Shown here piece by piece: positions 1-4,085 of a DNA stretch of 64,000 nucleotides (position 1 is the first letter of the stretch; the number at the start of each line of letters is the position of its first letter). The translations under genes and the position numbers were made by a program. Source of the DNA: Vibrio tarriae (GTDB lineage: Bacteria > Pseudomonadota > Gammaproteobacteria > Enterobacterales > Vibrionaceae); NCBI RefSeq assembly GCF_002216685.1, contig NZ_CP022352.1:1-64000 (forward strand). The letters are read 5' to 3'. A model generated the notes under the pieces. It saw only the letters and a list, made by a program, of their open reading frames with translations. It ran no database searches and was not told where the DNA came from.

Positions 1-27
1 AACATAATGTCGAGTAATACGAATTAA
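1..27 (-). other. Degenerate inverted dif-like (attP2-like) site
   Basis: Read on the minus strand this stretch contains AATTCGTATTA, a 7-base spacer, then TTATGTT at the window edge. The first part matches 9 of 11 bases of the XerC arm at 3813-3823, and the last part matches the start of the XerD arm. Vibrio IMEX phages carry a second, inverted dif-like site close to the first, so this may be the internal attP2-like copy. The site is cut by the window start and the spacer length is off by one from dif. Confidence 0.4.
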
Positions 28-56
28 GGTGTTGCCCGTTTTTAAATCACGGCTCG

Positions 57-93
57 ATTTTCTCTGCTATACGCTCGCGTGTAGAGAGAAAAT
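57..93. repeat. Long hairpin in phage intergenic region
   Basis: ATTTTCTCT at 57-65 pairs perfectly with 85-93, and 67-74 pairs with 77-84 with one G-T pair, leaving a single bulged base at 66. Filamentous phages have such hairpins (packaging signal and minus-strand origin) upstream of the plus origin, and the position here fits. The role is inferred from position only. Confidence 0.45.
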
Positions 94-383
94 GAGCAGC
101 CAAGCGGAAAGAACGCCAAGCACTTCCCATCATGCCGACACCGCGCGGCAGTTTCCCTCACCGTATTTTTGGACTATCTCGCGCCTCTGTGCGCGACCCT
201 CACGTTACTGCGTGACCACAATGACGACCAAACGACGGAATGACGACGACGAGAACTGAGGAGGAGGATTGGAGGAGAGCTGGGAGTAGCTTAGTGCGAA
301 TGGATGTGGATGCGGGCTTCATCCTGAAGACCGCGCCGCACCATCGCACAAGCATTCACGTAATCGGCCAAACTGACCACAGG

Positions 384-428
384 GTACACTATCTTTAATA
401 GTGTACTCTTGTCTCATTTTGAGACAAG
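384..428 (+). other. f1-type plus-strand replication origin
   Basis: Two perfect hairpins lie in tandem: GTACACTAT (384-392) with ATAGTGTAC (398-406), and CTTGTCTCA (408-416) with TGAGACAAG (420-428). The f1 origin has the same two-hairpin layout and shares the strings CTTTAATAGTG and ACTCTTGT. By analogy gpII would nick between T396 and A397 (CTTT/AATA). The site precedes gene II on the same strand, as in f1. The f1 sequence is quoted from memory. Confidence 0.82.
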
Positions 429-438
429 TTTGGATGAA

Positions 439-839
439 TCACCGCTTCTTCGTTCTGGGATAAAGCAACTCGCTTGCGTGCATCTCGTCCATCTCGTCAT
501 GGTTAAGTTGCTGATACTTTAAGCTATTTATAAAACTTTCGTGATCCTTGATATGTTGCCATGTTCTTAGCGTGATCACATCTGTTTGGTGCTTGGCTAA
601 TGTGTTGCTCAATTATGAAATCATCAAGTGTGTAACGACCATAAAAGGTATCCGTTGCAAATTTCGTCTGCGGTTATACCCAAGTTTTCAGCCAACAACT
701 TGATCTGGCTGGCTTTAGGCTCAGTATCTCCATTTTCCCACTTTAGATAAGTCTGCTTCGCAACTTTGACCCTCTTAGCGATTTCTTCTTGTGTGAATCC
801 ACATCGAGAGCGTGATTCCCTAAGTACGTCTTTAATCAT
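439..839 (-). pseudogene. Phage HTH repressor, apparently frameshifted
   Basis: The uninterrupted N-terminal part (624-839, 71 aa) is an XRE-type helix-turn-helix with the typical GFTQEEIAKR and KQTYLKWENG segments. The start at 839 is chosen because GGAGG lies 5 bases upstream; the ATG at 851 overlaps that site. After CNG the frame closes early, but skipping one base gives TFYGRYTLDDFIIEQ, and skipping another gives a 54-residue tail with TLRTWQHIKDHESFINSL. The three pieces add up to a clean 132-residue protein ending at 439. It lies divergent from gene II, the position of RstR in CTX phage. It could instead be a genuine 71-residue repressor followed by a separate TTG-started 57-residue ORF at 439-612. 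Confidence 0.65.
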
Positions 840-855
840 TGTATCCTCCATATAG

Positions 856-943
856 GTACGCTTTTTTATTAGTTTAACACCACCTTTTTACACCAATCGC
901 TTGAAATACGCATTATTAGACTGTAACTTATAAAAAAACGTAC
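856..943. promoter_or_regulatory. Repressor operator pair between repressor and gene II
   Basis: GTACGCTTTTTTAT at 856-869 and ATAAAAAAACGTAC at 930-943 form an inverted repeat with one mismatch. It sits exactly in the divergent control region between the repressor start (839) and gene II start (962). A TTGACA at 944-949 and a TTGAAA at 901-906 are possible -35 boxes for gene II. The likely role is repression of both promoters by the neighbouring HTH protein, as RstR does in CTX phage; this is inferred from position and symmetry. Confidence 0.5.
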
Positions 944-961
944 TTGACAGGGTTTTTTGGC

Positions 962-2259
962 GTGATAGATAAGCTTAAAATATCAATACCGTTCAAAGCT
1001 GAATTTACCTTCTCGACGCCATCAAGCGAAGTCGGGCGAGGCTGTGTCTTATGTTGATATTAAAGAGTGTTCACGCCGTGGCATTGGTCTTGAAGCTAAG
1101 ACCATCTTCTTTACTGGTGAGGTTGGGGCAGAGCAGTACGAAGTCGCAGACCTCCGTCATCCGTTCGAATCATTGCCAACACACTTCACTGGAATGGCAT
1201 TCAAAATTTATCAGGGTACGTATCTCCGCTCCCCATGTGTTGAGTTGAAAGCGTCACCAGCCAAAATCCTCCAAGGCCATAACGTCTACGGCCCAACATC
1301 TATCGAGGTTGGAGCCATCGAAATGTTGATGGCGTTCTACAACAATTATTCTGACGTCTACGAAATGCTAGATGTTCACTTGGCAACGCTGGATGCCATT
1401 GATGCCACTTACTCAGCGCGTGTGAAAACTGAGCTTCAAGCTAGACAAGTTATCCAGCAACTGAAAAAACGTATCCAATAAGCAGATGAGAACCGCCGTA
1501 CGCAATGAGCATGAAACCACTGTGTACTTCAATAAAGGCTCTCGCCACTGCGATCGTAAAGCCTATCTAAAAGGCCCCGAATTTAACCATCAATTAAATC
1601 ATTTTCGGTCACTTCAAGAAAAAGGTGATACGTCGTATGACCGTGTTATTGACGTTATGTCTGACCCAAGATTGATTAACTACGCTCGGCATCTTGTTCG
1701 CCTCGAAGCCGGAGCACATCGCAGATACCTAGACGACTTAGACATACCAAAGAACCTGTTCGACGCAATTAACTACCAGAAACAATACGAATCTACGGGA
1801 CGCAACTTAATCGCTGACATCTGGACAAAAGCGTTCACACCGTTACTAGAAGCACTGGAGGGGCAACACATGAACATCTTTAACGACGAAGAAGTGCACA
1901 ACAAACTCAAGCAAACTTACTTCCGGTATACACCTAAAGGTAATGTGTCATACGCTAGAGCTGACAAGCTTTTCAGGTTCTATCGTCAGTTAGTATCTGA
2001 TGGATATCATGCTACTTATCAATCGTTCACATCTCGACAAACTTTCGCTCGTCACCTAAACGACTTGCTTGCAATCGGCTTCTCCAAAGCTCAACTCCAA
2101 AACCTTCAAGGCAATGGCAACGACAATGTTGTTCCGTTGCTTCAGGTTATCGAAATCAATTTCTCACAGCAGCATCCGGCTGACTATGTAGAGCCTATCG
2201 TCGGCCATATCTCTCGCATGTATGGGTATGGTGACAACGTTATCCGTTTAACCGCTTAG
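962..2259 (+). pseudogene. Filamentous-phage replication initiator gpII (Cri), two frameshifts
   Basis: Nicks the origin to start rolling-circle replication in the family. Three reading-frame pieces join to one 431-residue protein (f1 gpII is 410). Piece one begins at GTG 962 with VIDKLKISIPF, like the f1 start MIDMLVLRLPF. One extra base near 1048-1050 shifts into the frame running to 1481, which holds HPFESLPTHFTGMAFKIYQG and KASPAKILQGHNVYG, nearly identical to f1. One extra A in the A6 run at 1464-1469 shifts into the last frame (QMRTAV onward to 2259), where LKNVSN restores the f1 motif LRNVSNGQT. So the full protein cannot be made unless the shifts are sequencing errors or are bypassed. 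The second shift needs +1 movement, so the AAAAAAC heptamer is not a -1 slippery site here. Confidence 0.82.
1870..2259 (+). CDS. gpX-like protein from internal start in gene II
   Basis: In f1, gpX is made from an internal Met within gene II (MNIYDDS...) and tempers replication. Here the equivalent MNIFNDEEV codons begin at 1870 and are preceded by GGAGGGG at 1857-1863, six bases upstream, a far stronger ribosome site than that of gene II. The 129-residue product is in frame and uninterrupted and includes NVVPLLQVIEINFSQQ, matching the f1 tail. It therefore survives although full gpII does not. Confidence 0.65.
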   Translation: MNIFNDEEVHNKLKQTYFRYTPKGNVSYARADKLFRFYRQLVSDGYHATYQSFTSRQTFARHLNDLLAIGFSKAQLQNLQGNGNDNVVPLLQVIEINFSQQHPADYVEPIVGHISRMYGYGDNVIRLTA

Positions 2260-2335
2260 TTCAGGGGTGTGTACTCATAGGAATAGGAGCGGGTACATAC
2301 CATAGAACGGCACCAACACACATAAGGACTCATTA

Positions 2336-2614
2336 ATGCTTAAAATCGAAATCTTCCCAGAAAATGCACATATCGAAACCCGCACTATCCCAAGCAAGGA
2401 TGACCAGCCTGGTCGTGAGATATATGAGCAAATAGCTTATGCACACCTCGGTGGTAAGTTCCCCGTAGAAATGAAGCTTCAACTGGAAAAAGGACAACCA
2501 GCGTATGTTGCAGGACAGTATGCAATACATCCCTCTAGCTTTGCTGTTAATAAGTACGGCTCTCTGGAGTTGAAGCGCTTCGGCTTCCTGATAGAACCCA
2601 TAAACCAAAAATAA
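2336..2614 (+). CDS. ssDNA-binding protein, phage gpV family
   Basis: Ninety-two residues matching f1 gpV (87 aa) along its length: it begins MLKIEIFP, has YAHLGGKFPVEMKLQLEKGQ where f1 has YVDLGNEYPVLVKITLDEGQ, and FAVNKYGSLELKRFGF near the end. Family members coat nascent single strands and switch replication from double- to single-stranded product. It follows gene II by 76 bases with an AAGGA ribosome site, keeping the II-X-V order of Ff phages. The reading frame is intact. f1 comparison is from memory. Confidence 0.9.
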   Translation: MLKIEIFPENAHIETRTIPSKDDQPGREIYEQIAYAHLGGKFPVEMKLQLEKGQPAYVAGQYAIHPSSFAVNKYGSLELKRFGFLIEPINQK

Positions 2615-2630
2615 AGGCTAGGTTAATGTT

Positions 2631-3290
2631 ATGGAAAACGTCAGTTCAATTTTACCGGAGCAAGACTTCTCTTGCTCCTTTGCAGACCTTTTAAAACGTC
2701 CACGCCACGCGCAAGAGCCACAAAAACTAGAGCCAAAACGCACGATTATTCGATGGACAGAAGAGGAGAAAACACAGCTTACCGCCTTGTTTAAGCAGGG
2801 CACTAATATTGAAATCATTGCATCTCAACTCAATCGTCCGGTCGATGGCGTTCTAGGTCAAATCCGCAAGCTCGGCTTAAGACGTTGCAAGACGCTAACG
2901 CTTGAGCAAGAGCAATTCTTAAAACGTGACTTCTGGCTTTTGGGTGTCGAGGGTTGCGCTAAAAAGCTCTGTCGTAACCGTAGCACCATAGCTTATTACG
3001 CCAAGCTACTTAACCTCAAAAAACCCACTCGAGACGAAGTTGACCCACCAATCCCACGCTGTTTATTACCTTATGACATGGTTAAACGGGTAGCGATTCT
3101 ACAGCGCAAATCACCGACATCGAGAAACCAAGTTGAAGATGCGGTGGTTATCTTTTACGACAAGAACGGCCCATCAACCGCAATGATGGCCATGCACTTA
3201 GACGAACTCTGTGCAGCATTGGACACACACTTTAGACGTAAGTCTGGCGTCACCGCATCAGCTTTGATGTATGGGTATAAGGCGGTGTGA
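2631..3290 (+). CDS. Unknown phage protein with Myb/HTH-like segment
   Basis: A 219-residue protein starting 16 bases after gpV. Residues about 41-85 (RWTEEEKTQLTALFKQG, then IASQLNRPVDGVLGQIRKLG) read like a Myb/SANT or HTH DNA-binding unit, and residues 93-130 (LEQEQFLKRDFWLLGVEGCA, RNRSTIAYYAKLLNL) look like a second one. The rest is unrecognised. It occupies the place where Ff phages carry the small coat genes, so it is cargo or regulator of the satellite. A transcriptional or helper-control role is a guess from the domain look. Confidence 0.7.
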   Translation: MENVSSILPEQDFSCSFADLLKRPRHAQEPQKLEPKRTIIRWTEEEKTQLTALFKQGTNIEIIASQLNRPVDGVLGQIRKLGLRRCKTLTLEQEQFLKRDFWLLGVEGCAKKLCRNRSTIAYYAKLLNLKKPTRDEVDPPIPRCLLPYDMVKRVAILQRKSPTSRNQVEDAVVIFYDKNGPSTAMMAMHLDELCAALDTHFRRKSGVTASALMYGYKAV

Positions 3291-3291
3291 T

Positions 3292-3546
3292 ATGAGCACT
3301 CGTTATAGAACTCACCGGTTTAAACGCCGTGATCATTGTCCCCAATGTGGGGATATCGACTTCCTATGCACCGAGTACATTATGGATAATCAGGTTTACA
3401 TGTACGAGGAGCAGTGTCCTAGGTGTTACGACTTCTGGCAAATAGGCCTTGAAGACTCACTCAACGATTACCGTAAATTCAACAACATCACATCTGGAGG
3501 CAAGTGTGAAAAAGATCTTCTACAAGGGCGGCGTCAGCATGGTTAA
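3292..3546 (+). CDS. Small zinc-ribbon protein
   Basis: Eighty-four residues, started at ATG 3292, directly after the stop of the previous gene (3288-3290), which suggests coupled translation. CPQCGDIDFLC near the start and CPRC about 30 residues later make a four-cysteine zinc ribbon. No further similarity is recognised. Earlier in-frame start at 3271 would overlap the preceding gene and lacks a better ribosome site. Confidence 0.6.
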   Translation: MSTRYRTHRFKRRDHCPQCGDIDFLCTEYIMDNQVYMYEEQCPRCYDFWQIGLEDSLNDYRKFNNITSGGKCEKDLLQGRRQHG

Positions 3547-3703
3547 TCGCCAAGATGACCCAACATATCAATGCACATCTTGTTATAAACCGTGGTTCCA
3601 AGATGAAATTTTTACAGGCTTAGTCATTATGCAGCCGCAATGTCCATCCTGTGGGGCTGTCATTCGCAAGCTCACCAAAGACCAACCATTAATCACCAAA
3701 TGA
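3506..3703 (+). CDS. Small double-CxxC zinc-ribbon protein
   Basis: Sixty-five residues from GTG 3506, chosen because GGAGG at 3496-3500 is spaced five bases upstream; ATG 3539 is the alternative (54 aa). CTSC and CPSCG pairs about 26 residues apart indicate a zinc ribbon. It overlaps the end of the preceding zinc-ribbon gene in another frame. It is the last gene before the dif-like site. Function unknown. Confidence 0.55.
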   Translation: MKKIFYKGGVSMVNRQDDPTYQCTSCYKPWFQDEIFTGLVIMQPQCPSCGAVIRKLTKDQPLITK

Positions 3704-3712
3704 CAGGGAGCT

Positions 3713-3744
3713 AACTGCCATAAGGCTTAAGCTTTGTGGCAGTT
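3713..3744 (+). terminator. Hairpin after last phage gene
   Basis: The two 16-base halves 3713-3728 and 3729-3744 are complementary except for two G-T or mismatched positions, with AACTGCCA and TGGCAGTT at the base. It lies between the last satellite gene and dif. There is no U tract, so it may be a terminator without tail or a structural element of the phage genome. Confidence 0.4.
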
Positions 3745-3812
3745 GAAACCTGTAACACTAATCAAGCCGCTTGAAATCTGTTACAAAAATCATCCATAAA
3801 CTAAAACACCTT

Positions 3813-3840
3813 AGTGCGTATTATGTATGTTATGTTAAAT
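3813..3840 (+). other. dif: dif-like XerCD recombination site (phage attachment site)
   Basis: The XerC-side arm AGTGCGTATTA, a six-base centre TGTATG, and XerD-side arm TTATGTTAAAT form a complete 28-bp dif. From memory it differs at one base from V. cholerae dif1, and the left-arm change (CGTATTA for CGCATTA) is the form seen in IMEX phage attP sites, so it looks like a hybrid junction left by phage integration. XerCD use it both to resolve chromosome dimers and to insert filamentous phages. Chromosomal genes begin right after it. Confidence 0.85.
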
Positions 3841-3926
3841 CATGACATGAAAACAAGTCGCAAACCTCAATCTGCTCCCTATTCTTAATCCAGCATTAAA
3901 CATAACTTCATTTACCATAAAATACC

Positions 3927-3970
3927 TAATAATCATATTTATCATTTGACAATGTTAAGTATGATTATTA
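3927..3970. repeat. Perfect 11-bp inverted repeat beside dif
   Basis: TAATAATCATA at 3927-3937 and TATGATTATTA at 3960-3970 are exact inverted copies 22 bases apart, with TTGACA between them at 3946-3951. It looks like an operator or a weak structure in the 308-base gene-free stretch 3841-4148, which otherwise holds only matS and a terminator. A 23-codon ORF (3952-4023) overlaps it but is not supported. Confidence 0.35.
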
Positions 3971-3983
3971 GTGACATTGTCAC
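3971..3983. other. matS: matS (MatP-binding) site
   Basis: GTGACATTGTCAC fits the enterobacterial matS consensus GTGACRNYGTCAC at every position. MatP binds these sites to organise the terminus macrodomain and hold sister termini at the septum. It lies 131 bp from dif, and a second exact match follows at 4996-5008; clustering near dif is what is expected of real matS. Confidence 0.75.
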
Positions 3984-4085
3984 TGTACTTGCATCAATTG
4001 TGTGTGCAAAAGTGTTTGTGTAATCCCTTGATTTGAAAACCTGTTACCAACACTTTCAAATGTGTTTAGGTTTGCTTCGCTAAAA

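What the first reader, a model, noticed from the sequence alone, without database searches (positions are those of the whole stretch)
1..3840. f1-like replicon living as a satellite at dif of Vibrio chromosome II
Gene II, X and V and the origin are close to coliphage f1, but there are no structural genes; instead there is a repressor, a two-HTH-like protein and two zinc ribbons. This combination is not one I recognise from the known CTX, RS1 or TLC maps.
Basis: partly seen in the sequence, partly recalled or inferred. Interest (0 to 1): 0.75.

Follow-up and report, generated by a model that had tools for sequence, protein, structure and literature searches.

The report
Coat-less filamentous phage satellite in Vibrio
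Beside the terminus of a Vibrio second chromosome sits a 3.9-kb virus-like element that can copy and insert its DNA but has no coat genes, and it belongs to a family in which one regulatory cassette rides on three different replication engines.

Summary
The finding is real and larger than described. The element is a 3,934-bp unit in two tandem copies across the join of the chromosome II contig, at dif. Upstream of base 1 is the other copy, then chromosome, not coat genes. The neighbouring copy is intact; in the window copy the repressor and gene II frames are broken. The unit has a CTXphi-type attP (88-92% identical to ig-1), an f1-type origin (19 of 20 bases), a repressor, a pII-type Rep, gV, a GcrA-DBD-like HTH protein (p219) and two zinc-ribbon-like genes. 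It differs from the RS1 and TLC sequences compared here. Nine p219 elements from Vibrio, Salinivibrio and viral contigs carry three replication backbones (f1 pII 2, distant pII 3, CTX RstA 4). No Zot/pI gene was found in any of six whole p219 genomes, so the helper is inferred: f1-like, Zot-positive inoviruses share its origin, attP design and, in one case, an identical ssDNA hairpin. The chromosome I dif is empty and has a mismatching centre, which may explain 'chromosome II only'. Verdict: a new variant of the known Xer-exploiting filamentous satellites. Mobilisation is unproven.

The parts
1..25 (-). Inverted arm (attP2-like) of the CTX-type attP; its partner attP1 lies in the last 127 bp of the contig, C1:1106269 onward
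   Evidence: junction sequences and box motifs; 88-92% identity of the 156-bp region to CTXphi ig-1; hairpin fold z -4.52, 0 of 200 shuffles
52..97 (+). Conserved ssDNA hairpin, candidate complementary-strand start
   Evidence: fold; identical core in L020 and in Zot-positive inovirus L047; covariation over 23 sequences
244..268 (+). GA-rich conserved block, function unknown
   Evidence: identical or 2 mismatches in L020, L017, L045, L047
387..430 (+). f1-type plus-strand origin: nick-site core and following inverted repeat
   Evidence: 26 bases identical in L016, L043, L044, L045, L047, L049; 19 of 20 core bases in f1; stem
439..851 (-). Repressor gene, HTH_3, RstR-like HTH; frame broken in this copy, 136 aa in the neighbouring copy
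962..2259 (+). Gene II-type replication initiator; frame broken in this copy, 431 aa in the neighbouring copy
   Evidence: Phage_CRI and G2P_X_C
2336..2614 (+). Gene V-type ssDNA-binding protein, 92 aa
   Evidence: PF02303, 2.1e-23; 50% identical over 80 aa to gV of L047
2631..3290 (+). p219, DNA-binding regulator: GcrA-DBD-like HTH, second HTH and a conserved C-terminal domain
3292..3546 (+). zn84, zinc-ribbon-like protein overlapping the end of p219 operon-style
   Evidence: CPxC...C...CPxC conserved; matched in 7 of 9 elements
3506..3703 (+). Second small CxxC...CxxC protein, 65 aa
   Evidence: only weak Pfam matches; matched in L020 alone
3713..3744 (.). Inverted repeat, terminator-like
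   Evidence: self-match at 87.5% on opposite strands
3813..3840 (+). dif of chromosome II, right end of the array

Best explanation
It is an Xer-exploiting satellite of filamentous phages. Shown by sequence: the parts, the tandem array at dif of chromosome II, the family, the swapped replication modules, and the absence of coat genes. Inferred: its pII-type nickase, f1-type origin, ssDNA-binding protein and repressor let it replicate by rolling circle, with the tandem array as template; the plus strand folds a CTX-type attP that XerC can join to dif; the hairpin at 52-97 starts the complementary strand; and spread needs the coat and export machine of a co-infecting f1-like Vibrio inovirus. p219 and its zinc-ribbon partner are a regulatory cassette standing where structural genes would be. 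My best guess is that the cassette acts on a partner common to all the backbones (helper or host promoters) rather than on its own Rep, since it occurs with three Rep types.
For: Tandem 3,934-bp units ending at dif. CTX-type attP, 88-92% identical to ig-1, folding z -4.52. Origin identical over 26 bases to 5 of 8 f1-like records examined, all 8 Zot-positive. Hairpin core identical in Zot-positive inovirus L047, with covariation. Intact Rep, gV, repressor and p219 in the neighbouring copy. Same p219 cassette on three backbones in nine elements. Other arrays: G187, Salinivibrio, L020 and, without p219, G150. Site: G004 has the flank genes and dif with no element protein hit. attP1 and the chromosome II dif share TGT after the XerC box; the empty chromosome I dif has CGT.
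Against: No helper in the genome: 0 Zot matches, and 0 in the five other p219 genomes searched whole. No link between p219 and Zot in the genus in either direction (0 of 5 against 74 of 227, p = 0.136). The hairpin also occurs on contigs of genomes without Zot, so it is not proof of packaging. Three of the 8 f1-like records (L046, L048, L050) did not show the origin motif; two of them start at or inside gene II. The copy in the window is broken as read. No particle, read-depth or expression data.
Confidence: 0.72

Rival explanations
1. An Xer-integrating rolling-circle plasmid with phage-type replication that is not packaged and spreads by transformation or with conjugative plasmids.
For: No Zot in six of six whole p219 genomes. 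The hairpin's core is also on contigs without Zot, one beside a TraD/TrwB-type gene.
Against: gV, f1-type origin and CTX-type attP are phage parts shared with Zot-positive inoviruses; spread over two genera and many species.
Confidence: 0.18
2. A decaying inovirus prophage that lost its coat genes and no longer moves.
For: Repressor and gene II frames are broken in the window copy; no helper in the genome.
Against: The neighbouring copy is intact. The same compact gene set recurs with p219 kept at 41-96% identity to ours, on three backbones and in arrays elsewhere, which decay does not predict.
Confidence: 0.07
3. An assembly artefact: a fragment of a normal inovirus whose coat genes were lost at the contig join.
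For: The contig is cut inside the array, and the copies differ only by single-base length differences.
Against: Both outer junctions run into chromosome; no Zot in the genome; similar Zot-free elements in other assemblies.
Confidence: 0.03

Closest known systems
RS1phi, satellite of CTXphi (L116, GU942563 1-5600)
   Same: Coat-less; attP/ig-1 at 90% identity over 156 bp; divergent repressor, then Rep, a small protein and one more gene; tandem arrays at dif
   Different: RS1 has RstA, RstB and RstC; here pII-type Rep, gV, p219 and zinc-ribbon genes; RstC and p219 show no similarity
TLCphi satellite (L120, L122, L123)
   Same: Coat-less, divergent repressor, pII-type Rep (Cri, 33.4% identical), small protein, HTH proteins, dif
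   Different: No XafT/VC1465-type protein, no TLC 230-aa homologue, CTX-type rather than TLC-type attP, gV not similar to the TLC 94-aa protein, p219 and zinc ribbon instead
f1-like Zot-positive Vibrio-type inoviruses (L043-L049)
   Same: Rep 66-71% identical; the 26-base origin core in 5 of these 7; CTX-type attP arms in 6 of these 7 (not L048)
   Different: They encode Zot/pI and other structural genes (L047 ORFs); p219 or zn84 not matched in them
G150 satellite array in a related genome
   Same: Same chromosome II dif neighbourhood, three tandem 3,604-bp units plus one unit on the larger contig, same hairpin core, gV 63% identical, no Zot
   Different: Distant pII-type Rep (96.8% to that of L020), no p219; a 186-aa multi-HTH protein in its place

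Membership tests
RS1phi satellites | no coat or morphogenesis genes | tested here: met
RS1phi satellites | CTXphi-type attP/ig-1 | tested here: met
   88-92% over 156 bp
RS1phi satellites | RstA-type Rep (PF02486) | tested here: not met
   Rep matches Phage_CRI/G2P_X_C only; no BLAST match to RstA at 1e-3
RS1phi satellites | RstC antirepressor | tested here: not met
   no similarity of RstC to p219
RS1phi satellites | RstR repressor | tested here: not met
   NF041951 42.8 bits, cut-off 80; HTH part only
RS1phi satellites | packaged by a helper inovirus | not testable with these tools
   no particle data; no Zot in the genome
TLCphi satellites | pII-type Rep (Cri) | tested here: met
   33.4% over 434 aa, 1.6e-78
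TLCphi satellites | XafT (VC1465 family) | tested here: not met
   NF040522: no match at E <= 0.001 in the genome; repressor HTH only 20.8 of 70 bits; p219 not similar to XafT
TLCphi satellites | single TLC-type attP used through XerD | tested here: inconclusive
   the two-arm CTX-type site is present; TLC's own attP was not compared in detail and the reaction was not tested
CTX-type attP(+) integration | two inverted dif-like arms that fold in the plus strand | tested here: met
CTX-type attP(+) integration | XerC-only ssDNA integration | not testable with these tools
   needs a recombination assay
Inoviridae (complete phage) | pI/Zot assembly ATPase and coat genes | tested here: not met
GcrA regulators (p219) | PF07750 match over its curated cut-off | tested here: not met
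   19.2 bits of 26.9; profile positions 2-49 of 155
GcrA regulators (p219) | GcrA DNA-binding domain fold | tested here: met

The most novel reading that the evidence does not exclude
p219 and its zinc-ribbon partner are the hallmark takeover module of a superfamily of filamentous-phage satellites. The module is exchanged between three replication backbones and, like the control genes of phage-inducible islands, reprograms helper or host promoters so that coat-less DNA is packaged; replication and attachment modules are interchangeable parts around it.
Probability: 0.3. Interest if true: 0.78.

Novelty: new variant of a known kind. Interest (0 to 1): 0.6.

Why it matters
The filamentous satellites I know of, and that the literature searches here brought up, are RS1 and TLC of V. 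cholerae, which affect how CTXphi integrates and moves. Here is a family in Vibrio and Salinivibrio, seen at dif in five of nine elements, with one accessory cassette on three replication engines. That makes a general question testable: what does a filamentous satellite need besides replication and attachment? The two dif sites of this genome give a natural test of the CTX compatibility rule. The hairpin shared by satellites, inoviruses and other Vibrio contigs is a candidate common start signal for ssDNA.

Tried and rejected
Packaging signal. I first read the 52-97 hairpin as a packaging signal and then weakened that: its core also lies on contigs of genomes without Zot (of 16 genomes with the core, 12 have no Zot match), one beside a TraD/TrwB-type gene. 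In IMG/VR the core gave 11 stretches in 10 records, all 10 with Zot, but inovirus records there are, as I recall, found partly through pI-like genes, so that count is biased.

Exclusion or helper co-residence: 0 of 5 p219 genomes have Zot, 74 of 227 overall, p = 0.136; neither is supported.

p219: no match in 50,697 phage or 72,556 plasmid records at 1e-5; nothing at E <= 0.001 in PDB by Foldseek; ten viral-library hits at E <= 0.001 with TM scores of 0.20-0.29 by query. The model is middling (pLDDT 71.6, pTM 0.39). The second look tested residues 36-85 mainly; the C-terminal domain was not tested alone, so no statement on its fold is made. No similarity to XafT, TLC 230 aa or RstC.

Others. 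Rfam on window 1-4000: one sub-threshold chance match; six loci holding the hairpin core: none. Single-protein scan of viral contigs with gene II: none; with the alignment 71 loci, of which I looked at L043-L050 (8 of 71) closely and the others only in motif scans. NF040522 over the genus: 133 of 227 genomes, none over cut-off. Short contigs L016 and L017 have no exact end overlap; L021 has 46 bases.

Literature. Searches: open-licence PMC only; none of the listings showed a paper on such a p219 satellite. I claim no more than that. Passages only were seen of PMC4246890, PMC9765430, PMC8458814, PMC7412436, PMC11630473, PMC7567579 and PMC7761403; of all other papers only search listings. PMC6744903 and PMC2967718 (TLC, XafT) are not held, so TLC biology rests on citing passages and recall; the name Cri for the TLC Rep is from the literature, not from a record label.
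Full report
Where it is. The window is the first 64,000 bases of a 1,106,395-bp contig in a two-contig, 4.12-Mb genome. A second copy of the element lies at the other end of that contig. The unit is 3,934 bp: copy A is C1:1102335-1106268; copy B is the last 127 bases plus window 1-3812, if the contig is circular, as the matching junction suggests. Left of copy A come 474 bp and then ordinary chromosomal genes; right of copy B is dif (3813-3840). I call the contig chromosome II from its size and its neighbours; the species was not determined. The same flank genes surround dif in G004, with 1.3 kb between the left gene and dif and no element protein hit, that is an empty site, and in G150, where another satellite array fills it.

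Copy state. The copies differ by five single-base length differences and no substitution. In copy A the repressor (136 aa) and gene II (431 aa) are whole; in the window copy both frames are broken. Length errors in an unpolished repeat at a contig end are the simplest cause; real decay of one copy is not excluded.

Attachment. The left and middle junctions read XerC box, 12-bp centre, weak XerD box, with an inverted arm whose far end is about 150 bp away. The region is 91-92% identical to CTXphi ig-1/attP in the 20 best of 46 matching phage records and 88-91% in the RS1/TLC-neighbour sequences fetched. It folds as a stem, z -4.52, 0 of 200 shuffles as good. Arms of this type were also seen in other satellites and in 6 of the 7 f1-like inoviruses L043-L049 (all but L048; for G150 and G187). 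The review PMC4246890 (passages) states that CTXphi uses dif1 and dif2 and that the bases next to the XerC site decide compatibility. Here attP1 starts TGT after the XerC box, the chromosome II dif TGT, and the only dif found in the 12 kb of chromosome I examined CGT; no element protein matched there. So that site is empty, which fits the rule, in one genome. In G150, where the bases after the box are TGA in attP and TCA in dif, only the first agrees, so the rule may need little.

Replication. The nick-site core matches f1 at 19 of 20 bases, 0 of 200 shuffles. Over 26 bases it is identical in satellite L016 and in L043, L044, L045, L047 and L049, 5 of the 8 records L043-L050, all 8 of them Zot-positive. 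Gene II is 39% identical to f1 over its C-terminal part, 66-71% to L043-L049 and 33.4% to TLC Cri. A 99% identical Rep is in a record labelled V. cholerae.

Hairpin. Window 52-97 forms a hairpin. Its core was found in 16 of 227 genus genomes, with no hit of the reversed control pattern, and in 11 stretches of 10 IMG/VR records. Over 23 distinct sequences 93.9% of cells pair, 10 of 20 pairs change on both sides, and the covariation score is 0.432 against 0.172 in shuffles and at most 0.154 when slid. Caveats: the sequences were picked by the core motif, so the eight pairs that never vary say nothing, 20 of 500 shuffles reach the count of 10 and 65 of 500 the count of pair types, and relatedness inflates the shuffle test; one pair (columns 6 and 49) is unpaired in 12 of 23. 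Two subclasses appear by eye: one in satellites and inoviruses, one mostly on other contigs, of which L138 carries a TraD/TrwB-type gene; L125, from a Zot-positive record, belongs to the second, against a clean split. G007, G011, G147, G150 and the own genome have the first subclass and no Zot; G147 (its contig is V. sonorensis) and G150 are satellites, G007 and G011 were not worked out.

Zot. The L020 record has one Zot, in an adjoining, oppositely oriented inovirus.

Known satellites. RS1 (L116) and TLC (L120, L122, L123) were fetched for comparison. TLC as read in L122: repressor 188 aa, Rep 522 aa, 94 aa, 230 aa, VC1465/XafT 194 aa, then the next element's attP. p219, gV and the zinc ribbon have no match at 1e-3 in any of the eight sequences L116-L123.

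How it works, shown and inferred. Shown: parts, array, site, family, swaps, lack of Zot. Inferred: rolling-circle replication, XerC integration of ssDNA, complementary-strand start at the hairpin, packaging by an f1-like inovirus, regulation by p219. No particle, read or expression data were available.

Verdict. A new variant of a known kind. Interest 0.6: one cassette on three backbones would surprise a specialist, while a coat-less dif satellite as such is known.

Noticed in passing
L138, L139, L142 and other loci: A hairpin with the same core but another outer stem lies on contigs of several Vibrio genomes, once beside a TraD/TrwB-type gene: a possible shared ssDNA start signal of plasmids and inoviruses.
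   Followed up: partly
L155 (G150:C1) and L156 (G150:C2): A related genome carries a different coat-less satellite in three tandem copies at the same dif neighbourhood and one on the larger contig, with a 186-aa multi-HTH protein instead of p219.
   Followed up: partly
L020, 1-5474 and 5440-11596: Two satellite units with different regulators lie beside an oppositely oriented Zot-positive inovirus whose Rep has only a weak MobT match.
   Followed up: partly
L047, 377-1480 and 6926-7677: Two tandem copies of one inovirus are nearly identical but have different intergenic hairpin segments, as if this segment were swapped.
   Followed up: no
window 3813-3971: dif and the sequence after it, with an inverted repeat at 3926-3971, recur at 85% on chromosome I of the same genome and, in part, in relatives.
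   Followed up: no
L017, about 3643-3870: In V. mytili the zinc-ribbon frame has a stop just after the conserved cysteine region.
   Followed up: no
L135 (G007:C3): The satellite/inovirus-type hairpin stands near an HTH_3 repressor gene in a genome without Zot: perhaps another satellite.
   Followed up: no
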